Of a stretch of DNA of 64,000 nt, positions 8,999 through 50,509 are shown piece by piece. Source of the DNA: Haloplanus sp. CK5-1 (GTDB lineage: Archaea; Halobacteriota; Halobacteria; Halobacteriales; Haloferacaceae); contig NZ_CP147505.1 in NCBI RefSeq assembly GCF_037201915.1, forward strand, positions 682,001-746,000. The letters run 5' to 3'. The position numbers and the translations under genes were made by a program. The notes beneath the pieces are model-generated. The model was not told the origin of the DNA. It made no database searches and worked only from the letters and a program-made list of their open reading frames with translations. Each line of letters opens with the position of its first letter. The first letter of the stretch is position 1.

Positions 8999-9090
8999 GC
9001 GGACGTGTGGTGTCCGCGGGGTGTTAATCCCCGGCGGTTCGTCCCGTTCGTGTGAACACGCTGAAGACCCCGGCTGCCCATCACTCCCCA

Positions 9091-9723
9091 ATGTCCTCGT
9101 GGAGACGCGACATCGCCAGCGGGCTGGTGGTGCTCGTGCCGATCCTCGTCATCGTGTTCGTCCTCAACTGGCTGTACTCCCGGGTGGCGGATCTGCCGAT
9201 CATCGACACGCTCCCGCCGTACTACGGCGTGCCAGTCGCCCTCGTCGTGTTCGCCATGCTGGTGCTGTCGGTCGGCTACCTGATGCGGACGACCGCTGGA
9301 CGCCTGTTCGAGGGTGTCCTCGACAGCGCGATGAACCGCGTGCCGCTCGTCCGCATCCTCTACAACGCCTCGAAACTGGCCGTCGAGACGGCTCTCACCG
9401 GCACCGAGGACCTCCAGAAGCCGGTTCGACTGGAGACGTGGCCGGGGATCAACATGACCGCGTTCAAGACGGGGAAGACCACGCCGGACGGCGAGGTGGT
9501 GTTGTTCATGCCCACCGCACCGAACATCACCACCGGCTTCGTCATCGAGGTCGACCCCGACCGGATCGAGGAGACGGGCGAGAGCGTCGAGGAGGCGCTG
9601 ACGCGCATCCTCAGCGCGGGGTTCGCGGAGGAAGACACCGCTCACGGCGTCGACATCGCCGTCGACCCCGTCGACGGCGCGGATGCGGACGTGGACGCCG
9701 CCGACGAAGACGACGGCCGGTAG
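9091..9723 (+). CDS. DUF502 family membrane protein
   Basis: A 210-residue protein with two N-terminal membrane helices (residues about 8-28 and 50-70) and a soluble domain. The motifs [16 protein letters not shown] and [18 protein letters not shown] are typical of DUF502, a family in bacteria, archaea and plants (where relatives are linked to vesicle coating). Its prokaryotic role is unknown. The C-terminus is a poly-acidic tail, common in halophiles. The ATG at 9091 is chosen because the 13 residues upstream are not conserved. Confidence 0.85.
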
Positions 9724-9727
9724 ACAC

Positions 9728-10681
9728 CTACGCGTCCGTCTCGACGAACTCGAACCAGTCGGCGTGGTCGTCGGTCCGGCGCTCGATCAGGTCGAAAAAG
9801 GCCTCCTGAACGTCGGTCGTCACCGGACCACGGGTCCCCTCGCCGATGACGACGTTGTCGATCTTCCGGATCGGCGTCACCTCGGCTGCAGTGCCGGAGA
9901 AGAACAGTTCGTCCGCGGTGTTGAGTTCGCCGCGGCTGATCGTGGCGTCGTCGTGGACGGTGTATCCCAGTTCGCGCGCGAGGGTGATGACCGTGTTTCG
10001 GGTGATCCCGTCGAGGATCCCCTCGGCGAGTCCGGGGGTGTAGATCTCGCCGTCACGGACGAGAAAGAGGTTCTCGCCCGGCCCCTCGGCGACGTTGCCC
10101 TCCTGGTTGAGCAGGATGGCCTCGGCGTAGCCCTCGCGTTTGGCCTCCAGACTCGCGAGGACGCTGTTGACGTACGGTCCGGTCGTCTTGGCGTTCGTCG
10201 GAATCTGCGAGGAGGCGTACTTGCGCCACGAGGAGACCGTGACCTCGACACCCTCTTCGAGGGCGTCCTCGCCCAGATAGGCCCCCCACGGCCAGACGGC
10301 GATGGCGACCCGTTCCGGGCAGTCCTCGGGACCCAGCCCCAGCATGTCGTAGCCGTAGAACGCGACGGGTCGGATGTAACAGGAGTGCAACTCCTGTCGG
10401 CGGATGAGTTCCTTCGTCGCCGCGGTCAGTTCCTCCCGATCGAAGGGAATCTCGAGGTTGTACGGCTGTCCCGACTGGTAGAAGCGGTCGAGGTGTTCGT
10501 CCCACCGGAAGATGGCCGGTCCCTCCTCGGTGTCGTAACACCGGACCCCCTCGAAGACGCCAGTACCGTAGTGGAGGCCGTGTGTGAGCACGTGGATCTG
10601 GGCGTCCTCCCAGTCGACGAACTCGCCGTCCATCCAGATGGTGTCGACGTCGCCTGCCTCGAGCATCTCGTCGAATCCCAT
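9728..10681 (-). CDS. ilvE: Branched-chain amino acid aminotransferase
   Basis: A PLP fold-type IV transaminase that makes valine, leucine and isoleucine from the 2-oxo acids. The 317-residue protein shows HVLTHGLHYGTGVFEGVR at the N-terminus, the Schiff-base lysine at about residue 165 in TNAKTTGPYVNS, and the phosphate-binding region EGPGENLFLV and TRNTVITLARELG. The ATG at 10679-10681 gives MGFDEM; a start ten codons earlier is possible but less family-like. It is a single gene, convergent with the DUF502 gene (4-base gap). Confidence 0.94.
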   Translation of the reverse strand: MGFDEMLEAGDVDTIWMDGEFVDWEDAQIHVLTHGLHYGTGVFEGVRCYDTEEGPAIFRWDEHLDRFYQSGQPYNLEIPFDREELTAATKELIRRQELHSCYIRPVAFYGYDMLGLGPEDCPERVAIAVWPWGAYLGEDALEEGVEVTVSSWRKYASSQIPTNAKTTGPYVNSVLASLEAKREGYAEAILLNQEGNVAEGPGENLFLVRDGEIYTPGLAEGILDGITRNTVITLARELGYTVHDDATISRGELNTADELFFSGTAAEVTPIRKIDNVVIGEGTRGPVTTDVQEAFFDLIERRTDDHADWFEFVETDA

Positions 10682-10890: not shown

Positions 10891-11847
10891 TCAACTGCGC
10901 TCCCCTCGGCGGCCGCCGGGGTGATCGAAGGAGCGTTCGGCCACGCTCCCGTCGGGGCGTCGACGGAGGGCAGAGAGGCCGTCGACCGTCTCGACGAGGA
11001 CGGCCTCACCCCCTGCAGTCCGTCGGTTACGCCGGATGACGTTCTCACAGACGACGTTGCCGGTGCGCGTGGGCCGGTCGTGGCGCGTGTGGCCGACCAC
11101 CTGTGGCGGCGCGTCCGGGGGGAGGCGGGAGAAGTCCAGCCACGCGAGACCGGCCCCCTCGCCCCGTCCCCCGCGGCCGCCGAGACCGAGGACGAGGGGG
11201 TACTCCTCGATGGCGCGGCGCTGAGTGGTCTCGTCGCTGGGTGTCCCGACCGCCGCCGCGACGTCCTCGGCGGCCGCGGCGAGGGCGTCGTTGGCGGCCG
11301 CCACGTCGTAGGGGTCGGGGCGACCCGCGTGGGCGTAGGTAACGCCGTATCCCTCGTAGGCCGCGACGACGTGGCCGTCACGGATCGCGCGACAGAACGC
11401 TCGCCGACCGTCGTCGCCGATCCGCCCGGAGTACCAGTCCCGCCAGCCGAAGCTGTCGGGGGTGAGCACGCCCATCTCGTGGTTGCCGAGCGTGACGCGG
11501 ACGCGACCCGGCGGGGCTTCGGCGAGCAGTCGTGAGACCAGTCGGACGACCGCTTCGTTGTCGGGGCCGCGGTCGATCAGGTCGCCGTTGAACACCAGGA
11601 CGTACCCCCCGTCGGCCCAGTGGAGGCGGCCGTCGTCGTCCGGGACGACGACCGGATCGTACTCCGGGTGGTCCGCGAGTGTCAGGAGCGCACGCCGCGC
11701 GTCGTCGAGGTAGCCGTGGATGTCGCTGATGCTCACGATCGGCGTGTGGTCGGTGGGATCGACGCCATCGCGGAGCCGCTTCGACAGGGTGGCGATCCCG
11801 TCTCGATCGGCGATGTCGGGGAACGGTTCGGTCGGTCGTGGGTCCAT
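10891..11847 (-). CDS. Calcineurin-like metallophosphoesterase
   Basis: A 318-residue phosphoesterase with the full metal-binding motif series: SDIHGYLDD, GDLIDRGPDN, LGNHEMG, YAHAGR and VGHTRHD. This order is shared by PPP-type phosphatases and diadenosine tetraphosphatase (ApaH)-like enzymes. The spacing and the GDLIDRG form fit a bis(5'-nucleosyl)-tetraphosphatase or protein phosphatase better than a nuclease, but the substrate is not determined. No membrane segments. It lies just downstream of the photolyase on the same strand (42-base gap). Confidence 0.87.
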   Translation of the reverse strand: MDPRPTEPFPDIADRDGIATLSKRLRDGVDPTDHTPIVSISDIHGYLDDARRALLTLADHPEYDPVVVPDDDGRLHWADGGYVLVFNGDLIDRGPDNEAVVRLVSRLLAEAPPGRVRVTLGNHEMGVLTPDSFGWRDWYSGRIGDDGRRAFCRAIRDGHVVAAYEGYGVTYAHAGRPDPYDVAAANDALAAAAEDVAAAVGTPSDETTQRRAIEEYPLVLGLGGRGGRGEGAGLAWLDFSRLPPDAPPQVVGHTRHDRPTRTGNVVCENVIRRNRRTAGGEAVLVETVDGLSALRRRPDGSVAERSFDHPGGRRGERS

Positions 11848-41031: not shown

Positions 41032-41193
41032 CTACGCCTCGTCGCCGCCGTCGGTCAGGAGGCTGACCTCCGTCTCGCGTTCCTCCTCGAACTCGTCGGG
41101 CACCCAGTCGTCGTCCTCGGCGTCGACGTCCGCCGTCGGTTCGTCCTCGACCCGTTCGTCGGTCCACGACTCGCGTTCGTAGTGGTGGCACAT
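41032..41193 (-). CDS. Small acidic haloarchaeal protein
   Basis: A 53-residue protein starting MCHHYERESWTDERVEDEPTA and continuing through acidic clusters to DEFEEERETEVSLLTDGGDEA. The MCHHYE start is shared by many very small haloarchaeal proteins of unknown function; the Cys-His-His could bind metal. ATG at 41191-41193. A plausible TATA (gttttacg) lies near 41233 on the minus strand. Confidence 0.65.
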   Translation of the reverse strand: MCHHYERESWTDERVEDEPTADVDAEDDDWVPDEFEEERETEVSLLTDGGDEA

Positions 41194-41372: not shown

Positions 41373-41927
41373 TCACGCCGACCCGCCGTCCCCGGAGGGA
41401 CGGGTGGCCAGCCACTCGAACTGCCTGATGTGGTCGAGGAGTTCCGGGACGCCGACCGGCGCGTATCCGATCACCTCCACCGACACGTTGACCGACCGCC
41501 GGTCCGGATCGAGGTACGGGAACCGGTCGGGCCAGTTGTTGTGGTGGTGGCCGTGGACCGTCCACCCCTTCCACTTTCGGGGGGCGTCGGCCGGGTCGTG
41601 GACGCAGTAGAACGGGACGTCGCGGTGCGTGAAGCGGAACTGCTCGTGAATGCGGACCGAATCGAGCGTCGGCATCACCGTCTCGTCGTGGTCCCCGAGG
41701 ACGAAGTCGATCGTTCCGTTGAGGCGGTCGAGACGGTCGGCGAACGTCGCGAAATCGTCCGTCACCGTGAGATCGCCCAGAAACACCACGTCGTCGTCGG
41801 GGGCGACGGCGTCGTTCCAGTTGGCGACGAGTGCCTCGTTCATCCCCTCGACCGAGTCGTACGGCCGGTCGCAGTAGTCGATGATGTTCCGGTGGTCGAA
41901 GTGCGTGTCCCCGACGAGAAAACGCAT
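41373..41927 (-). CDS. Small metallophosphoesterase, paralogue of 24385
   Basis: A 184-residue enzyme with GDTHFDHRNIIDYCDRPYDS, VFLGDLTVTDDFAT, FVLGDHDETVMP and the later THRDVPFYCVHDPADAPRKWKGWTVHGHHHNN, the same metal-binding series as the gene at 24385-24960 but with GDHD in place of GNHD. ATG at 41925-41927. It is the last gene before the accessory island at 42.0 kb. Confidence 0.87.
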   Translation of the reverse strand: MRFLVGDTHFDHRNIIDYCDRPYDSVEGMNEALVANWNDAVAPDDDVVFLGDLTVTDDFATFADRLDRLNGTIDFVLGDHDETVMPTLDSVRIHEQFRFTHRDVPFYCVHDPADAPRKWKGWTVHGHHHNNWPDRFPYLDPDRRSVNVSVEVIGYAPVGVPELLDHIRQFEWLATRPSGDGGSA

Positions 41928-42007: not shown

Positions 42008-42172
42008 CTACTCGCCCGACTCCGCGGGCCCCGACGCCGACGCCGATCCGGTCTCGCTCCGTGCGCGTTCGACCGTCGCCGCCTCGTCGGTCCGCAGGTC
42101 GGAAACGAAGCCGAAAAGATCGTCGACGTCGGCGACGCCCTCCTTGACCAGATAGCGGACCGAACGTGTCAT
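42008..42172 (-). pseudogene. Displaced 3' end of a pilB gene (54-codon frame with its own ATG)
   Basis: From the ATG at 42170-42172 the frame reads MTRSVRYLVKEGVADVDDLFGFVSDLRTDEAATVERARSE and ends TGSASASGPAESGE. The middle is the C-terminus of PilB as in the intact gene at 48287 (VRYLVKEGIADVDDLF), with a different tail. The DNA from 42052 to 42160 matches 48310 to 48418 at 105 of 109 positions by eye. So this is a truncated pilB 3' end left by an insertion or recombination; MTRS gives it a start of its own, so a short peptide could still be made. Confidence 0.8.
42052..42160. repeat. 109-bp direct repeat, left copy (pilB 3' end)
   Basis: This segment matches 48310-48418 in the same orientation with about 4 differences, at positions that are mostly silent or conservative in PilB. 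It marks the left border of the 6.3-kb island, in the way attL or homologous-recombination scars do. Confidence 0.75.
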
Positions 42173-42236
42173 CGAACTCTTCACATACCACAGTCAATTT
42201 TATTACTATTATAGCGGATTACTCGCTTAAAATTGC

Positions 42237-42251
42237 GTGCACTAGGTGCAC
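42237..42251. promoter_or_regulatory. Operator-like palindrome, copy 1
   Basis: GTGCACTAGGTGCAC: two palindromic GTGCAC hexamers separated by TAG. An almost identical copy is at 42491-42505, on the other side of the ribbon-helix-helix gene. This copy lies upstream of the displaced pilB frame, next to AT-rich promoter-like sequence. Confidence 0.6.
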
Positions 42252-42266
42252 AATGTTTGAAGCTGG

Positions 42267-42467
42267 TTAGAGAGTACCCTTTCGTTTCCGAATAATGATT
42301 TCTCGCACTCGTTCAACGTGGTTCGCCTCAGATTGAACGAATGCTATGAGGATGGCTTCGACGATCTCGGAGCGGCTAACTCCGAGATCGCCACACTCAG
42401 CGACCAGTTCATCCACTTCTCGCACGATTTCCTCGTCAACAGCGACCCCGAACTTCTCTTTCGCCAT
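42267..42467 (-). CDS. Ribbon-helix-helix (CopG/Arc-like) DNA-binding protein
   Basis: A 66-residue protein starting MAKEKFGVAVDEEIVREVDELVAECGDLGVSRSEIVEAIL. This is the RHH layout: an N-terminal beta strand (KFGVAVDEE) and two helices with a turn at GVSRSEIV, ending in a basic tail RKRKGTL. Its DNA is markedly AT-richer than its neighbours, a sign of transfer. Two operator-like GTGCAC-TAR-GTGCAC palindromes flank it; the copy at 42491-42505 is 24-38 bp upstream of its ATG, which would give autoregulation. Confidence 0.8.
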   Translation of the reverse strand: MAKEKFGVAVDEEIVREVDELVAECGDLGVSRSEIVEAILIAFVQSEANHVERVREIIIRKRKGTL

Positions 42468-42490
42468 AGCTACAACAAGCTAAGAACAGC

Positions 42491-42505
42491 GTGCACTAAG
42501 TGCAC
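42491..42505. promoter_or_regulatory. Operator-like palindrome, copy 2
   Basis: GTGCACTAAGTGCAC, differing from the copy at 42237-42251 by one base in the spacer. It lies 24-38 bp upstream of the ribbon-helix-helix start codon, where a TATA or BRE element would be, as expected of a repressor binding site. Confidence 0.6.
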
Positions 42506-42617
42506 GGTGCTTTCAGTCCGTTAGAGTTAGTTCAGTAAACCAGGAAACGCTTCCATGACACGCTCTAGAAAGGCTATTCCGGACACGGCCACGATGACGA
42601 AGGAGCCGACAGCAATG

Positions 42618-43200
42618 AGCGACGGATCGATCGAACGGATTCGAAATCGTCTCCAGTTCGGCAACAAGCCAAATCGAACTGTCATGACGGGTCTCGACGA
42701 TCCCCCAGTCCTGCCGGCCGGTGTCGAGGTACGGGCGGCCGAGGCGATCGATAGACGCGAGATCGAATCGCTCTGTGAGTCCCGGACTGGGTTCAGCATC
42801 TCCCAGGTGCTGGACGCCGTTTTTCACGACGAGAAGTTGGCCTACGGGTTCGCCGCGACAGAAGTCGAGAGGGTGATCGGTTTCGGCGTCGTGATCTGTC
42901 TGCCCAGCGACGACGCCGACGACCGATTCAGCGTCCGCTGACCGAGTATCCACTGGGTGAGGAGGCCGCTATCTTCTAATGAACGCGAGACCCCACTCGC
43001 CCGGGAAGTCGGCGTCGGCTCGGCCGTCGGGACGGCGTGGCTCCGGCCGCACACCGTCGATTCGTCAGCCCTCTTCGAGGAGATGGGGTTCGAGCGGATG
43101 GACACCGTCGAGGACTTCTACCGCTCGCTCGACGGCGAACGCGACTGCCCCGATTGCGGGGCCCCTGCGAGTGCTCCGCGGGGATCTACGTCCGGAGACC
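42618..43200 (+). pseudogene. Broken GNAT-like acetyltransferase gene
   Basis: The frame from the ATG at 42618 reads VEVRAAEAIDRREIESLCESRTGFSISQVLDAVFHDEKLAYGFAATEVERVIGFGVV, GNAT-like, and stops at 42939-42941. In the same frame after the stop is AREVGVGSAVGTAWL, FEEMGFERMDTVEDFYRS and GERDCPDCGAP, the normal C-terminus, and a one-base shift then gives CECSAGIYVRRP, the zinc-ribbon tail of such haloarchaeal GNATs. A missing middle, a stop and a frameshift make it a pseudogene. Confidence 0.6.
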
Positions 43201-43387
43201 GCCGGACACCGCTGACTTACACACCGCAGTTCTCCGCGGAGGAGTCCCGTTCGAATCGAGGCAGCTCTACCGGCTCCGGCGAACAGCGAGCGATCAGGGC
43301 GGGCTTCGGAGACCACCCCCGGAAGAGTGACTGCGAACCAGCGGCGGTCCGCCGTTCGAAGCTCGGGCCACGTCGAAATCGGGTCTG
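43201..43387. other. Short tract after the GNAT remnant, no gene seen
   Basis: I see only low-quality open frames here. It separates the broken GNAT gene from the convergent VWA gene and is part of the island. Confidence 0.45.
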
Positions 43388-46300
43388 TCAGTGCCGCTGG
43401 GTCCGGAGGACTTGGTCGCGGTATACGTCTAGCAGGCGGTCCGCGAACGCCCGGTCGTTCACTTCGACGTAGGCGTCGTCGCCGAAGATGTCCGACATCC
43501 CGTACCCCGTATCGACGCCGATCCCGATAACCCCGATCCCGTCCCGGCGGCTCCGCTCGATCTGCGATCGGGCGTCCGACTCCGGGTCCGACCCGTCCGT
43601 CAGACCGACGTTCGGCGCGCCGTCCGTGACGACCAGCAGTATCCGTTCGTTCGCGTTCGCGGCCCGCAGTAGCCGACGGCCCTCCCGGATCCCGTCCGCG
43701 AGCGGGGTCCTCCCGCCGGTTCCGACCGAGGAGAGGTGCGAGGGTTCGAACGGCTCGTTCGGGCCGGTCACGAGCGTGACCGAGCGGTCGCGCCCGTGGA
43801 ACCCGGCCGCGACGAACTCGTCGCCGAGGAGGTCGGCCGCGCCCGCGAGCGACGCGAGTGCGACTTTCGCCTCGAACCCGTCCATGCTGCCGCTGAGGTC
43901 GATCGCCACGCCGAGACACCGCGACCCGGTCCCCGTGTGACGGCGGCGCGTGAACAGGCCGTCGTTCGGGAGGCGTCCGCCCGCCGACCGCGCGACCGCC
44001 GGCAGGTCGAGCCGGTGGCCGGTGTGTGCGCGCACCTCGCGCCGTTCCTCGGGCGGGAACTGCGCGAGCAGCTCCCGGATCGTCTCGTCGAGCCCCCGTT
44101 CGCTCATCGCGTCCAGGATCTCCTGGGGGTCGCCGTGCCGGCCGATCCGGTCGTCGCGGTCGGCCCTGAGTCCCTGCAGTTCGCTGCTCGTCCGCCGGTC
44201 CAGACTCGCGAGGTCGCCCAGCGCGTCGTCGATAACCGTCCCGTCGCCCTCCTCGTATTCGACGTCCACAATGCTCACCTCCCCCGGCGACGATGCCGAC
44301 CGGCGCCCCGCGTCGACAAGGAGCTGTTCGGTGAACTCGGCCTCACCTGTCCCCGCTGGGGCCGTTTCCACGGGGGTGTCGGAGGCGACCGACGCGTCGT
44401 CCGCCCGTTCGTCCGGCTCGGCCGGCTCGGCGACCAGGTCCTCCTCGCCGGTTTCGGCCCCGTCGGTCGTCGTGTCCTCGAGCGCCGACTCCGTTCCCGC
44501 GTCCCGCTCACCGCTTCTCGGGTCCCCCTCATCATCACGCTCGCCGTCGCGGCTCCCGCCTTTCCCGTCGGAGCCGGCGCTCTCCCCCGGGTCCGTTTCG
44601 GTCTCTGTGTCTTCCCGGTCCGGAGTCGACTCGGGAGGGGCGTCCCGTGGTTGCGCACTCTCGGCCTGCCTCGACTCGGCGACTGCGTCCGTGTCGTCCC
44701 CGATCTGAGCCGAGAGACGCTCTTCGTCGAGGCGTTCGGGAAGGGAGCGCTCCCAGTGGTCACCCTGGGCACGTGCGAGTCCGCGTCGAGCGGCGTAGAC
44801 GAGCCCGTTCCACCACCGGCGCAGTAGTTCGGCCGCTCGATACAGGGCGGATCCGATCAGCACGGGAATGCGGCGCAGTCCCTCCCGGAGCGCGTTCCCG
44901 AACCGACGGACCGCCCCCACGGCGGCGCCCCACAGCGCCACAACGCGAGCGACGAACGGCTCCCAGACGCCGGCGGCGAGCGCCGGCAGTCGAACGAGCA
45001 GCCAGACCAGGAACACCGGGAACAGAGCGCCTACCAAGGCCACCAGGAAGAGCATATACGGGACGCGTGCGATGCCATCGGATGGCACCCGGTCCGCGAA
45101 CGGTTCGAGGAACGGGTCGACGTGCTCCTCACCGACGACGTACTCGGCGAGTACGTACGGGAGCATGAACAGCATGTAGTACCCAAACAGTAGCGAATCC
45201 AGGTCGACCTCCCGATCGCCGGGGAGACGGGCGTTTACGGCGCTCGCGACCTTGCCGGCGGACGAGGCGACGGCGCTCCGAGCCCGCTGGACGCCCCCGC
45301 TGAGGCCCCCTCGAATCCGGGCGGTCATGTCCGTGATACCGTCCCACGCCCCGGAGGCGCGGTCGACTATCGGCTCCCAGTAGCCGAAGCGGCTCGTGAC
45401 GGACCGACACGCTCCCCAGACGAGGAAGACCGGGAGCAAGAGCGGATAGAGGACGAAGAGCAGGTTGAACGGCCCCTGGGGGAGCGGCCTGTAGAACGCT
45501 TCCAGCGTGTCCTCGTACCCGAGATGCGACGCCGCGAAGATGACCGGGAAGAGCGGGACCGTCCCGATCCACTCGAAGACGTCGCTCGCCGTGGTCGGCT
45601 CGTCGGACTCCTCCGATCCGCTTCCCCGCGGTTCGGTGTCCGTCTCCGGAGCCAGCGTCGAGGTGTGTTGGAACGGGAGGTCCAAATCCTCCCGGAGGTG
45701 GCGCTCGGCGGTCCGGGGATGGTACAGCCGGTCGACCACCGTCTCCAGTATCCGGTCGGCGACCTCGTCGCGGAGCTCGGCGGAGGCCCCGGGGTCGCGA
45801 ACCCGGTCGAGTTCCGTCCCGACGTACGAGAGCGTCCCGCGGACGTCCTCCGAGGTCGACTCCAGTCCCGCGACTCGCCCGGTGTAGGCTAACTCGCGGA
45901 CCCCCTCTACGAGCGCGGCGTCCTCACGGAGCCCGTCTACGCGGGGCTGCTCGTCGAACGTCGCCTCCATCCGCCGGGCGTACGGCCCCGCGAGCCCCCG
46001 GTACTCCGAGAGGCGGGCCGCGGTGACGTGGGCGTGCTCGACCATACGGTGGACGAACGTCGCGACTGGCTCAGGGTGGGCGGCCCCCGCCGCGAACGAC
46101 TCGGTCCGGTCCCAGCTGTCCACCCGCCGACAGTACGACAGGTGGTTGACCGTGTCGAGCAGCAGTTCGTACTCCCGGTCGCGCGAGAGGTCGGCGTCCA
46201 GGTACTCGCCGACGCTGGCCGGGAGTACGAACTCGTGGGACGGCCCGTCCGCCCACGAACGGCTCTCCTCGACCCTGAGTTCGTCGCCGAAGCCGATGTC

Positions 46301-46393
46301 GACCTCCTCGTCGCCGTACACCGACCCGAGGCTCTCCAGCACGCGCCGAAGTTGCGCCCGCCCGGCGTCGGAACCGCCCTCGTCGGTGGCCAT
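43388..46393 (-). CDS. Membrane-anchored VWA protein (CobT/NorD-like)
   Basis: A 1001-residue protein. The N-terminal region (1-250) is helical and acidic with no clear motif. Then come about four to five membrane helices (TVPLFPVIFAASHLG, FNLLFVLYPLLLPVFLVWG, FGYYMLFMLPYVLAEYVV, YMLFLVALVGALFPVFLVWLLV), an acidic, low-complexity linker of about 200 residues, and a C-terminal VWA domain with a complete MIDAS: DLSGSMDG (near residue 830), TGGRTPLADGI and VVTDGAPN. CobT/NorD/CoxE-type VWA proteins work with MoxR-class ATPases as metallochelatase or protein-remodelling machines; membrane anchoring of this kind is unusual. Its ATPase partner is directly upstream (3-base gap). Role unknown. Confidence 0.85.
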   Translation of the reverse strand: MATDEGGSDAGRAQLRRVLESLGSVYGDEEVDIGFGDELRVEESRSWADGPSHEFVLPASVGEYLDADLSRDREYELLLDTVNHLSYCRRVDSWDRTESFAAGAAHPEPVATFVHRMVEHAHVTAARLSEYRGLAGPYARRMEATFDEQPRVDGLREDAALVEGVRELAYTGRVAGLESTSEDVRGTLSYVGTELDRVRDPGASAELRDEVADRILETVVDRLYHPRTAERHLREDLDLPFQHTSTLAPETDTEPRGSGSEESDEPTTASDVFEWIGTVPLFPVIFAASHLGYEDTLEAFYRPLPQGPFNLLFVLYPLLLPVFLVWGACRSVTSRFGYWEPIVDRASGAWDGITDMTARIRGGLSGGVQRARSAVASSAGKVASAVNARLPGDREVDLDSLLFGYYMLFMLPYVLAEYVVGEEHVDPFLEPFADRVPSDGIARVPYMLFLVALVGALFPVFLVWLLVRLPALAAGVWEPFVARVVALWGAAVGAVRRFGNALREGLRRIPVLIGSALYRAAELLRRWWNGLVYAARRGLARAQGDHWERSLPERLDEERLSAQIGDDTDAVAESRQAESAQPRDAPPESTPDREDTETETDPGESAGSDGKGGSRDGERDDEGDPRSGERDAGTESALEDTTTDGAETGEEDLVAEPAEPDERADDASVASDTPVETAPAGTGEAEFTEQLLVDAGRRSASSPGEVSIVDVEYEEGDGTVIDDALGDLASLDRRTSSELQGLRADRDDRIGRHGDPQEILDAMSERGLDETIRELLAQFPPEERREVRAHTGHRLDLPAVARSAGGRLPNDGLFTRRRHTGTGSRCLGVAIDLSGSMDGFEAKVALASLAGAADLLGDEFVAAGFHGRDRSVTLVTGPNEPFEPSHLSSVGTGGRTPLADGIREGRRLLRAANANERILLVVTDGAPNVGLTDGSDPESDARSQIERSRRDGIGVIGIGVDTGYGMSDIFGDDAYVEVNDRAFADRLLDVYRDQVLRTQRH

Positions 46394-46396
46394 CGG

Positions 46397-47449
46397 TCAG
46401 ATGTCGTCCTCGTCGATCGCGCTCCCCGCGAGCACGTTCTCGACGAGGGTCGAGCGCTCGTCGCCCGAGACGCGGCCGGCGAGGTCGGACGCCACCCACT
46501 CCCGGGCGGCGTCCTCGCCGAGCGGGGCGCCTTGGACGTACGACTTGACCGTCGAGGCGACCGTGGAGACGGCGTCCGGTTCGTCGTAGAACGGTCGGAG
46601 CAAGGCGTCCCGGAACGCGGTCATCATCGGTTCCTCGATCCCCTCGTCGTCGTAGACGCGTGCGGTCTTCAGCCACTCGAGCACCAGCGCCGTCGGGACC
46701 CCCCGTTCGACCGACGACCCCGAGCGCGCCGCGGTGTCGCGCACTTCGTTGACCGTAGTGAGGACGACCCGCACTAGCGGGCCGGGCGCCTCGGTCCGGT
46801 TCGTGACCAGTTCGACCGCGGCCTCGAAGTCCGACTGCGCGAGGTAGCTCATCTCGAACTTGCTACCGTAGCGACGCTGCTCCGCGAGGTCGAGCTGTTC
46901 GACGAAGTAATCGGGCCCCTCGTTCGTTGTGACGACGACGACCAGGTTGTAGGGGTCGGCCTCGACGATCTCGTTGCCCCGTCCAGTGTGAACTCTGGCG
47001 CGACCGTCGAGGATCGGGAACAAGATGCCCTTCGCCTCCGGCCGGGCGCGGTTGACCTCGTCGAACAGAAGGACCGTTCGGCGCTGTTGGCTCGACCTGA
47101 GCGCCCTAGTCACCGGCCCGTCCTGCCAGTAGACGGTCCCGTCGAGCATCGTCGGACTGCCCAGCAGGTCGGTCTCGCGGATGTCGTACAGCCCCTGCAC
47201 CGTGAACAGCGGCGCGTCCAGGTCCTCGGCGAGCCGGCGGACCGCAGTCGTCTTCCCGCACCCCGTCGGCCCGGTGAACCAGAACCGCGGCAGTTTCTCG
47301 GCCCCGCGGGCGTTCCGGACGACGGCCTTCACCCGCTCCAGTTGCCCCGTGTCGTGGAACGGCGGCACGTCCGCCGGCACCGCGTAGTCGAAGTCCTCGC
47401 GTCTCCTGTGTGGGATCAGCTCCTCTCCCTGACGTTCCTGTTGAGACAT
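46397..47449 (-). CDS. MoxR/NorQ-like AAA+ ATPase, partner of the VWA protein
   Basis: A 350-residue AAA+ protein with Walker A GPTGCGKTTAVRRLAED, a pore-loop region IRETDLLGSPTMLDGTVYWQDG, Walker B TVLLFDEVNRARPEAKG, and sensor 1 VVVTTNEGPDYF (asparagine). The order and the DLLG segment are of the MoxR/CbbQ/NorQ group. It is the first gene of a two-gene operon with the VWA protein. Start ATG at 47447-47449, preceded by an AT-rich tract (tatttgtaaac) that could be a TATA region. Distinct from the DUF58-linked MoxR at 59896. Confidence 0.88.
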   Translation of the reverse strand: MSQQERQGEELIPHRRREDFDYAVPADVPPFHDTGQLERVKAVVRNARGAEKLPRFWFTGPTGCGKTTAVRRLAEDLDAPLFTVQGLYDIRETDLLGSPTMLDGTVYWQDGPVTRALRSSQQRRTVLLFDEVNRARPEAKGILFPILDGRARVHTGRGNEIVEADPYNLVVVVTTNEGPDYFVEQLDLAEQRRYGSKFEMSYLAQSDFEAAVELVTNRTEAPGPLVRVVLTTVNEVRDTAARSGSSVERGVPTALVLEWLKTARVYDDEGIEEPMMTAFRDALLRPFYDEPDAVSTVASTVKSYVQGAPLGEDAAREWVASDLAGRVSGDERSTLVENVLAGSAIDEDDI

Positions 47450-47790
47450 CTATAGATCCTGAGATTCGACGCTACGGTTGGCGTTATCTTCCGTTTACAA
47501 ATACCCTGTGATGTACCCGGTGGAGCGACAGCGAGTCGAGGGTCGAAGCGCGACGACAGCGCGAACAAATCCATCGACTACCGGAGCCCGTGGCGCGGCG
47601 GCACGTGAGTGGAGTGAGAATCTGCTCGCGACGACCTGGGGCCGCCCGTCGGTGTGCTCGCCGAGGAGATCGTCGACGACGGCGACGCCGAGGAACGACG
47701 GCCGTCGAATACACCGAGCAGGCCCTCGACCACGATACTGTTCAGATGAGCGCGATCGGAGTGAGGATACCTCGAAAGCCCCTGGCGTCA
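47450..47790. other. Island tract, one coding-like fragment only
   Basis: Upstream of the MoxR operon. On the plus strand a frame from a TGA near 47616 to the TGA at 47747-47749 reads ESARDDLGPPVGVLAEEIVDDGDAEE, native-looking and acidic, but it has only a late GTG and no matching neighbour, so it is probably a gene remnant. Nothing else was recognised. Confidence 0.45.
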
Positions 47791-48117
47791 TCAGAACGCA
47801 ACGCGTTCTGATTGGCTCACAAGGGCTCCGGTCTTGTGACCGTCTCGGCTCCCGGGACTCGTTACGCTCCTCACTGCGTTGCGGTGCTTGCGTCGTCCGG
47901 GTTCGCCGAGACGCCAGCCCCTTTCAGTCCCGCCCGCATCGGCTGGCCGGCCGCCGCCGGGCGGGACTGAAAGGGGCGACTCGCTGGAGGACGGCGGCCG
48001 GCGTAAGCACCACAGGCCGAAGGCCGAGGAGCGCAGCGAGGTTCGCGCACGGCTCTGCCGTGCGCGTGTCCGAGGCGGCTGTGCCGCCTCGCTACCCCCG
48101 AGTTCAGCGAGTCGGGG
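47791..48117. repeat. Hairpin-rich non-coding tract
   Basis: At least five perfect short hairpins are packed in about 330 bp. TCAGAACGC/GCGTTCTGA with loop AAC (47791-47811). CGCGCACGGC/GCCGTGCGCG with loop TCT (48044-48066). CGAGGCGGC/GCCGCCTCG with loop TGT (48071-48091). GGCC/GGCC with loop GAA (48015-48025). CCCCGA/TCGGGG (48096-48117). Larger still is CCCCTTTCAGTCCCGCCCG (47918-47936) pairing over its full 19 bp with 47958-47976. No frame has native codon use. Confidence 0.75.
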
Positions 48118-48286
48118 CTTTCGAGGTAGTCCCAGTTTCGCCTGCTTATTTGAACGCTACCCCTCGACCACCTGGCGGACTTAGAACTATCCGAATCTAC
48201 GGGAGGGGTGTAACACGACCGACCGAGTCACGAGCGGAACCACCCCATCGATCCCGAAATCGGTGCCGAATGGGGCCGGGGGCGGG
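48118..48286. other. Spacer before pilB, no gene seen
   Basis: The remaining part of the 837-base gap contains no recognised gene. A few T-rich bases near 48147-48156 could act as a terminator for pilB transcription from the minus strand. Confidence 0.4.
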
Positions 48287-50509
48287 TCAGTCGCCTTCGC
48301 TCCCGGCCGTCTCGCTCCGTGCGCGTTCGACCGTCGCCGCCTCGTCGGTCCGCAGGTCGGAAACGAAGCCGAAGAGGTCGTCGACGTCGGCGATGCCCTC
48401 CTTGACCAGGTAGCGGACGTAGCGGTGTTTGCGGTGGAACTCCTCCTCGACGGCCTCGACCTCGCGGTCGCTCGCCTCGGCCAAGCGGTGGAAGAGGCGG
48501 ACGCCGAGCGAGCGGCGGCCGTCGTCGAGGTGCGGGTGGGTGTAGTCGAGGTCGAACCGCCCGTCGGTGTCCCGGCGCGCGACGACGTTCCAGTGGAGCG
48601 TGCGGTCACCCTTCTCGACGACGCCCGAGGGGAGTCGGCCGCCGTCGAGGGCCTCGTACTCGCGTTCGCTCAGGAGTTCGACCGCCTCGGCGACGTAGCG
48701 GTCGTCGTCGACGTGGTGCGGGAAGACGACGAGGTCGATCTCCCGGAGGAGGTAGGGGGCAAGTCCCTGTTCGATCACGCGGTTGATCAGCGTCTCGACG
48801 TCCTCGGCGTGGGTGGTGCCGATGACGCCGTGACCCGTATTCAGGGTCTCGCCGAACGTCTCGAAGGAGGCGGGCGTGTTGATCTCCGCGATCACCTCCA
48901 CGTCCGGATTCAGGTAGTTGGTCTCGGTCATGAGTCGGGCCATCGACACCCGCTTGTACTCGTTCTCGTGGTCCCGGGTGGTGAGCGAGACGCCCGTCTC
49001 GTGGGGGAGACGGACCTCTCGACTCCCCTCGTCGATGGAGACCGGCCGGTCGTCGTAGGGGACGAACGGCATGTGGGCGTTCATCAGCGTCGTCTTGCCG
49101 ACGCCCGTCGGTCCAGAAAAGAGGACAACCCCCTGGTGTTCGTACAGCATCCAGAGCAGGGTCACGAGTTCCGTCGAGATGGCGTCGCGTTCGATCAGGT
49201 CGACGGGCGTCATGGGGTCGCCGGCCTGCTTGCGGATGGAGACGTGGGGACCCCCCTCCGAGATGACGGGCAGGGCGACCGCACACCGGATCGTCTCCGC
49301 GACGCCCCGGAGGTCGAGGTTCACCTTCGCGCTCGGGCGACTCGCGTTGAGTTCCGTCCCGTCGCTCGCGGCCAGTTGCGTGACGACGTTGACGAAGGCC
49401 GTCTCGTCGTCGAAGGCGAGGTTCGTCGGGATCCGTCCGACGGGGAGGTCGTCGGCACGGGGGATCACCTTCACCCGTTCGTCGACGCGGTTCGCCTCCA
49501 CGTCCTCCAGATGCGGGTCGCGGATCGGTACGGTGAGGACGCCGTGGCCAACGTAATCGCGGAGGACGTAGTAGACCAGGTCGTCGAGGCGGTCGGTGGC
49601 GTAGCGGCTGTCGACCGGCGGGACCGCGAGGCCGTACTCGGCGAGTGCCGTCGTCACGCGGTACTTCGTCGCGGCGACCCACGCCCGCGTGTTGCGGGCG
49701 GTGAGTCGCCGGGAGAGGAACCCGCGGGCGCGCTCCCGGACGAACGCGTGGCGGTCCTCGACCACGTCCTCGACGTTCGCCTCCCAAATCCGCTCTTTGC
49801 ACTCCTCGATGAGTCGCTCGTCGCCGGGCAACAGGTCGGGTTCGAGCACCGCGTACTTCGTCGAGAAGTGGTCGCTCCCGAGCAAGTGGTCGCGGTAGAC
49901 GACCACGTCGACGTCGAACCCCGCGAAGTCGACGGTGTAGCGCCGGAGTCGCTCGCCGGCGACCCGGTCGACGAAGTCCGCGTCGGCGTCGAAGTCGGTC
50001 CGGGCGGGCGCGTAGTTCTCCGTGTGGACGACCACCCGGTCGTCGGCCCGCCCCACGTCGACCACCTCGATCCGGTCGTCGAGGGCGAGCGGCGTCGACG
50101 GGCCGAGTAACCGGAGTTCACACAGCGCGTGGTAGGTGAGGCGTCGCCACGCGGCGGGCGAGGCGTCGATCAGGCGGTCCAGCGCCCGGCGATACTTGGG
50201 TTCGAAGCCCGCCGCCGCGCGCTCGGCGGTCCCCTCCCGCGTCAGCGGCCGCCGGCGGTTGACGACCGTGAAGTGCTCGCGGATGCGTTCCATCGCGGCG
50301 CGGTCCTCGGGGCCGAGTCCGGGTTCGCGGACCGCGTACTCGAACCCCGCATCGCCCGGCACCTCGCGGACCGTCGCCACGACGCCCGGCGACACCTCGT
50401 ACTGTGCGACCACGTCGGGGGCGTACCACGCCTCGGCGTCCCCGGGCGGGACGGGCGCTGGCACGACCCGATCCGAGCCGTCGGGTCCAGCAGTCGATCC
50501 GTCGGTCAT
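48287..50509 (-). CDS. pilB: Type IV pilus/secretion ATPase PilB (GspE-like)
   Basis: A 740-residue hexameric secretion ATPase. The central region has Walker A FSGPTGVGKTTLMNAHMP, the Asp box and Walker B MTETNYLNPDVEVIAEIN and the His box GTTHAEDVETLINRVIE. The N-terminal 250 residues are the haloarchaeal PilB extension. The C-terminus VKEGIADVDDLFGFVSDLRTDEAATVERARSE overlaps the repeat at 48310-48418. It should pair with PilC, which is at 28060-29997, about 18 kb downstream, so the usual pilB-pilC operon has been split. Its 3' end may be the incoming end of the island. Confidence 0.9.
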   Translation of the reverse strand: MTDGSTAGPDGSDRVVPAPVPPGDAEAWYAPDVVAQYEVSPGVVATVREVPGDAGFEYAVREPGLGPEDRAAMERIREHFTVVNRRRPLTREGTAERAAAGFEPKYRRALDRLIDASPAAWRRLTYHALCELRLLGPSTPLALDDRIEVVDVGRADDRVVVHTENYAPARTDFDADADFVDRVAGERLRRYTVDFAGFDVDVVVYRDHLLGSDHFSTKYAVLEPDLLPGDERLIEECKERIWEANVEDVVEDRHAFVRERARGFLSRRLTARNTRAWVAATKYRVTTALAEYGLAVPPVDSRYATDRLDDLVYYVLRDYVGHGVLTVPIRDPHLEDVEANRVDERVKVIPRADDLPVGRIPTNLAFDDETAFVNVVTQLAASDGTELNASRPSAKVNLDLRGVAETIRCAVALPVISEGGPHVSIRKQAGDPMTPVDLIERDAISTELVTLLWMLYEHQGVVLFSGPTGVGKTTLMNAHMPFVPYDDRPVSIDEGSREVRLPHETGVSLTTRDHENEYKRVSMARLMTETNYLNPDVEVIAEINTPASFETFGETLNTGHGVIGTTHAEDVETLINRVIEQGLAPYLLREIDLVVFPHHVDDDRYVAEAVELLSEREYEALDGGRLPSGVVEKGDRTLHWNVVARRDTDGRFDLDYTHPHLDDGRRSLGVRLFHRLAEASDREVEAVEEEFHRKHRYVRYLVKEGIADVDDLFGFVSDLRTDEAATVERARSETAGSEGD
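48310..48418. repeat. 109-bp direct repeat, right copy (pilB 3' end)
   Basis: Right border of the island. It is the coding end of intact pilB and matches 42052-42160 in the same orientation with about 4 base differences. Confidence 0.75.

What the first reader, a model, noticed from the sequence alone, without database searches (positions are those of the whole stretch)
42008..48418. About 6.3-kb accessory island bounded by direct repeats of the pilB 3' end
A 109-bp segment at 42052-42160 and 48310-48418 is repeated in the same orientation with about four differences; both are the coding end of pilB. The left copy ends a truncated 54-codon frame with a different tail (TGSASASGPAESGE against TAGSEGD), the right copy is the end of the intact gene. 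Between them are an AT-rich RHH gene, a broken GNAT, the VWA-MoxR pair and a hairpin tract. This looks like an insertion that supplied a replacement pilB end, with pilB as the target instead of a tRNA. No integrase is seen.
Basis: partly seen in the sequence, partly recalled or inferred. Interest (0 to 1): 0.7.

Follow-up and report, generated by a model that had tools for sequence, protein, structure and literature searches.

The report
pilB-flanked mosaic island with MITE border
A salt-loving archaeon (a Haloplanus) carries about 6 kb of foreign DNA beside a pilus-motor gene, between two copies of that gene's end; one copy is cut exactly by a small jumping element, so the layout looks like an ordinary recombination and transposon scar rather than a new kind of self-integrating island.

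Summary
A 110-bp direct repeat of the pilB 3' end (4 differences) lies at 42051-42160 and 48309-48418; the right copy ends the intact gene. Three Haloplanus relatives have one pilB end next to the window's left-flank genes, so the 6.2 kb between the copies is an insertion. No repeat-flanked pilB end was seen in about 40 other pilB loci.

The integrase-type reading is weakly supported. The "AT-rich RHH gene" is a complete 404-bp MITE (42162-42565) of a family seen in at least eight genera; length and target duplications match MITEHsal2. Its likely parent IS has about 25 copies in this genome. The left pilB fragment begins exactly at the MITE terminus, and this copy, unlike 15 of 17 others, has no target duplication. 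The cargo (GNAT remnant, VWA, MoxR) is mostly 88-90% identical in DNA to part of a larger cluster in another haloarchaeal family, so it was acquired horizontally. No tyrosine recombinase lies in the window.

Best reading: a homologous-recombination/MITE mosaic, in which incoming DNA supplied an intact pilB end plus accessory genes and the old end survives cut at a MITE.

Side finding: true integrase elements do target pilB in haloarchaea, but inside the gene.

The parts
48287..50509 (-). pilB, intact (740 aa), right copy of the end at 48309-48418
   Evidence: the ORF listing; Pfam T2SSE 6e-20; 89-91% aa to seven intact Haloplanus pilB genes
48309..48418 (-). right copy of the 110-bp repeat
42051..42160 (-). 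left copy of the 110-bp repeat: remnant of a pilB 3' end, cut at the MITE terminus
42008..42172 (-). 54-codon chimeric frame: ATG from the MITE end, the rest from the pilB end with the tail TGSASASGPAESGE
   Evidence: sequence; MITE edge
42162..42565 (.). MITE, 404 bp, terminal inverted repeats GAACGTGTCATCGAA / TTCCATGACACGCTC (consensus GAGCGTGTCATAGAA), no target duplication in this copy
42267..42467 (-). 66-aa ribbon-helix-helix protein encoded inside the MITE
   Evidence: PF01402 1.7e-4; closely similar protein in the other MITE copies although the DNA differs by 8-22% between most copy types
42684..43240 (+). GNAT acetyltransferase remnant (frame broken near 42941); an intact 196-aa orthologue exists in G385
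   Evidence: blastn 78% to L103; intact frame
43388..46393 (-). VWA-domain protein with apparent membrane segments, 1001 aa
   Evidence: PF00092 weak (0.0025); cobaltochelatase-type VWA 1e-8; 88-90% DNA identity to G385
46397..47449 (-). MoxR-type AAA ATPase, 350 aa
   Evidence: AAA_5 3e-22; 92% aa to G385, absent (E<=1e-60) from 387 of 392 genomes of the order
47771..48130 (.). palindromic dispersed repeat (hairpin tract), bounded by inverted ACCTCGAAAGCCCC / GGGGCTTTCGAGGTA
   Evidence: matches in 52 of 60 relatives to 47450-48309, mostly to this part; fold z -11.8
41373..41927 (-). phosphoesterase-like gene between the left pilB fragment and the conserved neighbour; not beside pilB in relatives
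   Evidence: function by inspection only (no Pfam or NCBIfam hit)
41032..41193 (-). small acidic MCHH protein, the conserved left-hand neighbour of pilB in relatives
   Evidence: sequence; synteny

Best explanation
This is a recombination-built mosaic island and not a site-specific integrative element. Inferred history: a MITE, moved by the resident IS, lay in the 3' part of a pilB copy. Incoming DNA from a close relative, carrying an intact pilB end followed by accessory genes (MoxR, VWA, GNAT) and its own MITE, recombined in by homology: one crossover in pilB, the other in the MITE or, less specifically, an illegitimate join at the MITE end. That would restore an intact pilB (right copy), place the accessory block next to it, and leave the old 3' end (left copy) stranded on the far side of the MITE without a matching target duplication. 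Shown: the insertion, the horizontal origin of the cargo, the MITE identity and its exact abutment on the pilB fragment, the missing duplication, the close relatedness of the two pilB ends, and the absence of a tyrosine recombinase. Inferred: the order of events, which copy is native, and the two crossovers.
For: Single pilB end next to the left-flank genes in G004, G006 and G010. The left pilB fragment starts at the MITE terminus, and this MITE copy has no target duplication, whereas 15 of 17 other intact copies have one of 5-10 bp. The likely parent IS (1069 bp, terminal repeat GAGGGTGTCATAGAA, DDE transposase) has about 25 copies in this genome, and 3 of 7 sampled also lack a target duplication, so IS-linked rearrangement is common here. 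Both pilB ends share changes absent from G004 and each differs from it at 8 of 110 positions, so they are sibling alleles; 3 of their 4 differences are silent. The cargo is mostly 88-90% identical in DNA to a segment of a larger cluster in another family, cut at the MoxR start and near the GNAT start. No tyrosine recombinase in the window.
Against: No strain with the presumed donor arrangement (pilB, MoxR-VWA, MITE) was found. A test for a recombinant MITE was inconclusive: the window copy looks mosaic, but so do many other copies. The left tail is seen in no relative, so which copy is native stays open. A simple adjacent deletion from the MITE end would leave the same scar.
Confidence: 0.55

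Rival explanations
1. MITE-adjacent deletion after a duplication: pilB (or at least its 3' half) was duplicated around the accessory block, for example by single-crossover integration of a plasmid carrying pilB, and a later transposase-driven deletion starting at the MITE end removed all but the last 110 bp of the left copy.
For: The fragment begins at the MITE end with no target duplication; adjacent deletions are a usual by-product of DDE transposition (general knowledge); the parent IS is abundant in the genome.
Against: It needs a larger pilB duplication for which there is no trace; no relative has two pilB copies side by side.
Confidence: 0.25
2. Site-specific integration into the pilB 3' end by a recombinase, with a replacement 3' end carried by the element (as e14 and phage 21 do at icd in E. 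coli); the integrase gene has since been lost and a MITE inserted at the edge.
For: Direct repeat of a gene 3' end with an intact gene on one side; foreign cargo. pilB is a target of tyrosine-recombinase elements elsewhere in haloarchaea (PMC10264941).
Against: No tyrosine recombinase in the 64 kb; the pilB-targeting elements found use sites inside the gene with 8-bp repeats, not the 3' end; about 40 other pilB loci show no duplicated end; the repeat edge coincides with a transposon terminus; the cargo in G385 has no pilB end nearby.
Confidence: 0.12
3. The left fragment and the phosphoesterase came in together from another strain, joined illegitimately to the MITE of an older island that already lay downstream of pilB; the right copy and tail are native.
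For: The left tail is atypical for the genus, while the right tail aligns with that of G004; the phosphoesterase is not beside pilB in relatives.
Against: It needs two independent acquisitions at one spot.
Confidence: 0.08

Closest known systems
Deletion-coupled insertions and MGE-associated rearrangements of haloarchaeal genomes (Haloquadratum, Halobacterium; PMC3119063, PMC10264941)
   Same: Unrelated blocks at one chromosomal position between conserved flanks, with mobile elements at junctions and some elements lacking target duplications
   Different: Here one junction also leaves a 110-bp repeat of the neighbouring gene's end
MITEHsal2 of Halobacterium salinarum 91-R6 (PMC10264941, Table A2: 411-413 bp, target duplications 6 and 8 bp)
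   Same: 404-406 bp element with 5-10 bp target duplications; a family copy lies on plasmid pHSAL2 of the same strain
   Different: The window copy is 83% identical to that copy and has no target duplication; the published MITEHsal2 sequence was not compared directly
pilB2 integrative element of Halobacterium NRC-1 / 63-R2 (about 10 kb, 8-bp direct repeat; PMC10264941)
   Same: pilB as the place of insertion
   Different: It sits within the gene with an 8-bp repeat; the window island lies after the gene with a 110-bp repeat and no integrase
e14 / phage 21 at icd in E. coli (from general knowledge)
   Same: A direct repeat of a gene's 3' end with the intact gene on one side
   Different: No integrase, no recurrent site, and one repeat edge is a transposon terminus
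MoxR-vWA systems, including the NTP-dependent conflict systems of Kaur et al. (PMC7159879)
   Same: MoxR ATPase next to a VWA protein; in G385 the cluster also has a second MoxR-VWA pair, a HEAT-repeat protein and a 1066-aa tubulin-like protein
   Different: The window holds only one MoxR-VWA pair plus a dead GNAT; no PADLOC defence model is met convincingly

Membership tests
Site-specific integrative element with gene-end replacement | recombinase gene in the element | tested here: not met
   PF00589 scan of the genome: 21 matches, none in the window. Serine recombinases were not searched with a profile; no such gene was recognised among the island ORFs
Site-specific integrative element with gene-end replacement | empty attB in relatives, with the gene ending once | tested here: met
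   G004, G006 and G010 have one pilB end next to the left-flank genes, but none with the left-type tail
Site-specific integrative element with gene-end replacement | the same site used by related elements | tested here: not met
   no duplicated pilB end in about 40 other pilB loci
Site-specific integrative element with gene-end replacement | repeat limits set by att core and element end, not by another transposon | tested here: not met
   left limit is a MITE terminus
Site-specific integrative element with gene-end replacement | circular form or excision | not testable with these tools
   no reads available
MITEHsal2-type MITE | length and terminal inverted repeats | tested here: met
   404 bp in the window; TIRs with 2 and 1 mismatches to the family consensus; published length 411-413 bp with 6-8 bp duplications
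MITEHsal2-type MITE | target duplication | tested here: not met
   none in the window copy; 5-10 bp in 15 of 17 other intact copies. Read as loss after insertion
MITEHsal2-type MITE | sequence identity to the named element | tested here: inconclusive
   83% to a copy on pHSAL2 of strain 91-R6, in which MITEHsal2 is described; the reference sequence itself was not available
vWA-MoxR ternary conflict system | MoxR and VWA genes adjacent | tested here: met
vWA-MoxR ternary conflict system | third component or effector next to them | tested here: not met
   only a broken GNAT is beside them in the window; PADLOC hits are weak AAA cross-matches

The most novel reading that the evidence does not exclude
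An archaeal integrative element that uses the 3' end of pilB as its attachment site, restoring the gene with a replacement end, and that has since lost its integrase: a protein-gene analogue of tRNA-targeting islands, and a third pilB integration site besides the P-loop and TGHG sites used by tyrosine-recombinase elements.
Probability: 0.1. Interest if true: 0.5.

Novelty: new member of a known kind. Interest (0 to 1): 0.3.

Why it matters
The case shows how a gene-end repeat that looks like an integration footprint can come from a MITE cutting a gene fragment, which matters for automatic calling of genomic islands from direct repeats. It documents a cross-family transfer of a MoxR-VWA block. 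The comparison also showed that haloarchaeal pilB is a repeated target of genuine tyrosine-recombinase elements, which may bear on how pilus genes are switched off and restored.

Tried and rejected
tRNA at the borders: none in the window. RNA families in the island: none. Viral carriers of the MoxR gene: none. Plasmid or phage carriers of the MITE, MoxR or pilB end: the MITE is on many haloarchaeal plasmids, MoxR only at about 45% or less, the pilB end nowhere relevant, and no phage carries the MITE. Composite transposon using the left MITE end and another terminal repeat at the right border: no such repeat near 48.3 kb. Recombinant-MITE test (MaxChi): 7 of 36 triples significant for the window copy, but 49 of 360 overall, so inconclusive. 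Mosaic scan of pilB against ten relatives: no clear breakpoint.

Full report
Observation. The two pilB ends are real: 42051-42160 and 48309-48418, same orientation, 110 nt, 4 differences. pilB lies on the minus strand, 48287-50509, and is intact. The left copy ends in TGSASASGPAESGE*, the right in TAGSEGD*.

Organism and empty site. In G004, G006 and G010 pilB ends once, about 25-450 bp before the homologue of window 41.24-40.33 kb, which includes the small MCHH gene. The two G004 contigs overlap by 149 identical bases, so its pilB is one gene. The 6.2 kb between the repeats is therefore an insertion in the window's lineage. About 40 other pilB loci from Haloplanus, Haloferax, Halorubrum, Halobellus and others show no second pilB end.

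The left border is a transposable element. Window 42162-42565 is repeated at about 405 bp with sharp edges in this genome and in other haloarchaea. Copies share terminal inverted repeats (GAGCGTGTCATAGAA), and 15 of 17 other intact copies have target duplications of 5-10 bp. Copies within one genome are mostly identical, so the family has moved recently. It occurs on plasmids of Halobacterium, Halorhabdus, Halorientalis, Natrinema, Haloarcula, Halalkaliarchaeum and others. A family copy lies on pHSAL2 of H. salinarum 91-R6, the strain in which MITEHsal2 is listed at 411-413 bp with 6- and 8-bp duplications (PMC10264941); 405 bp plus the duplication gives exactly those lengths. Nearly the same terminal repeat bounds about 25 copies of a 1069-bp IS with a DDE transposase (PF01609) in this genome, the likely source of transposase. 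The RHH gene of the finding is the 66-aa frame inside this MITE, well conserved in sequence between copies whose DNA mostly differs by 8-22%.

What that means for the repeat. The left pilB fragment starts at the MITE terminus, and the ATG of the 54-codon frame belongs to the MITE. The window copy has no target duplication: pilB codons on one side, unrelated DNA on the other. Something happened at the MITE end after it inserted. The 5' limit of the repeat is thus set by the MITE, and the 3' limit by the naturally variable pilB tail (tails differ in nearly every relative). No att core needs to be invoked.

Relation of the two ends. Each differs from G004 at 8 of 110 positions; they share six of these differences and have two private ones each. 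Three of the four differences between them are silent. They look like two sibling alleles that were both under selection until recently, not like an old pseudogene copy. Which is native cannot be told: the right tail aligns better with G004, but the left one adjoins the conserved left flank.

Cargo. MoxR is absent at E <= 1e-60 from 387 of 392 genomes of the order; G385 of another family has it at 92% protein identity. The block 42690-47441 is 78% (GNAT) and 88-90% (VWA, MoxR) identical in DNA to G385, where it is part of a longer cluster with a second MoxR-VWA pair, a HEAT-repeat protein and a 1066-aa tubulin-like protein (the last named by inspection). The window has only the GNAT-VWA-MoxR end of that cluster, and its GNAT is broken. 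The function of the pair is unknown; a role in defence or protein remodelling is inference from MoxR-VWA systems in general (PMC7159879).

Mechanism. The simplest account is homologous recombination with DNA from a close relative: crossover in pilB on the right, and in a shared MITE (or an illegitimate join at its end) on the left. It explains the intact pilB, the stranded 3' end cut at the MITE, the missing duplication and the sibling-level divergence. A MITE-adjacent deletion after a larger pilB duplication explains the scar equally well but needs an extra duplication. Integration by a recombinase at the pilB 3' end is the weakest: no tyrosine recombinase, no recurrence.

Side result. True integrative elements do use pilB in haloarchaea, inside the gene. 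In Halorubrum halophilum pilB is split just after the P-loop (CTCAACGC|T) by a 7.5-kb element with an 8-bp repeat TCAACGCT, CTACTAGTAG-like motifs near both ends and a tyrosine recombinase. The same site is broken in Hrr. vacuolatum, Haloplanus G011 and G001 and in G047 of another family. G003 has a recombinase of the same family in a 22-kb insert at a second pilB motif with the 8-bp repeat ATACGGGC. This agrees with the published pilB2 element of Halobacterium NRC-1 (8-bp duplication, PMC10264941).

Noticed in passing
L144:3960-11540 (Halorubrum halophilum); L143:11374; L036:~7125; L033:11812; L158:1317; L031:7260 to L032:9380: pilB is a recurrent integration target inside the gene: a P-loop site (AACGCC|CACATG) in five genomes of several genera and a second site (ATACGGGC) in G003; where an element could be read it carries one tyrosine-recombinase family, 8-bp direct repeats and, in several cases, subterminal CTACTAGTAG-like motifs
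   Followed up: partly
window 42162-42565 and copies L072-L083, L106-L110: A MITE that encodes a conserved 66-aa ribbon-helix-helix protein flanked by TGCACTAGGTGCAC-like palindromes; a coding MITE with a protein conserved across genera is unusual
   Followed up: partly
G000:C1, about 25 places (e.g. 9053-10121, L184): 1069-bp IS with DDE transposase, copies nearly identical (0-1 differences among 7 sampled), 3 of 7 sampled without a target duplication: a recent expansion with rearrangements
   Followed up: partly
L033:4133-4298 and 11647-11812 (Haloplanus G001): 166-bp direct repeat (96.4%) of an internal pilB segment, both copies ending at the P-loop integration site, 7.5 kb apart
   Followed up: partly
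window 47771-48130: Long palindromic dispersed repeat with the core GGGCGGGACTGAAAGGGGC, found across most haloarchaeal relatives; nature unknown
   Followed up: partly
L102:8576-19273 with L103:91-4082 (G385): Cluster of two MoxR-VWA pairs with a HEAT-repeat protein and a 1066-aa protein with a tubulin-like N-terminus; possible conflict system without a PADLOC model
   Followed up: no
G000:C1:42603-44919 (L189): 2.3-kb element bounded by terminal repeats like those of the IS and MITE, with two non-transposase genes (195 and 350 aa): a possible passenger-carrying cassette
   Followed up: no
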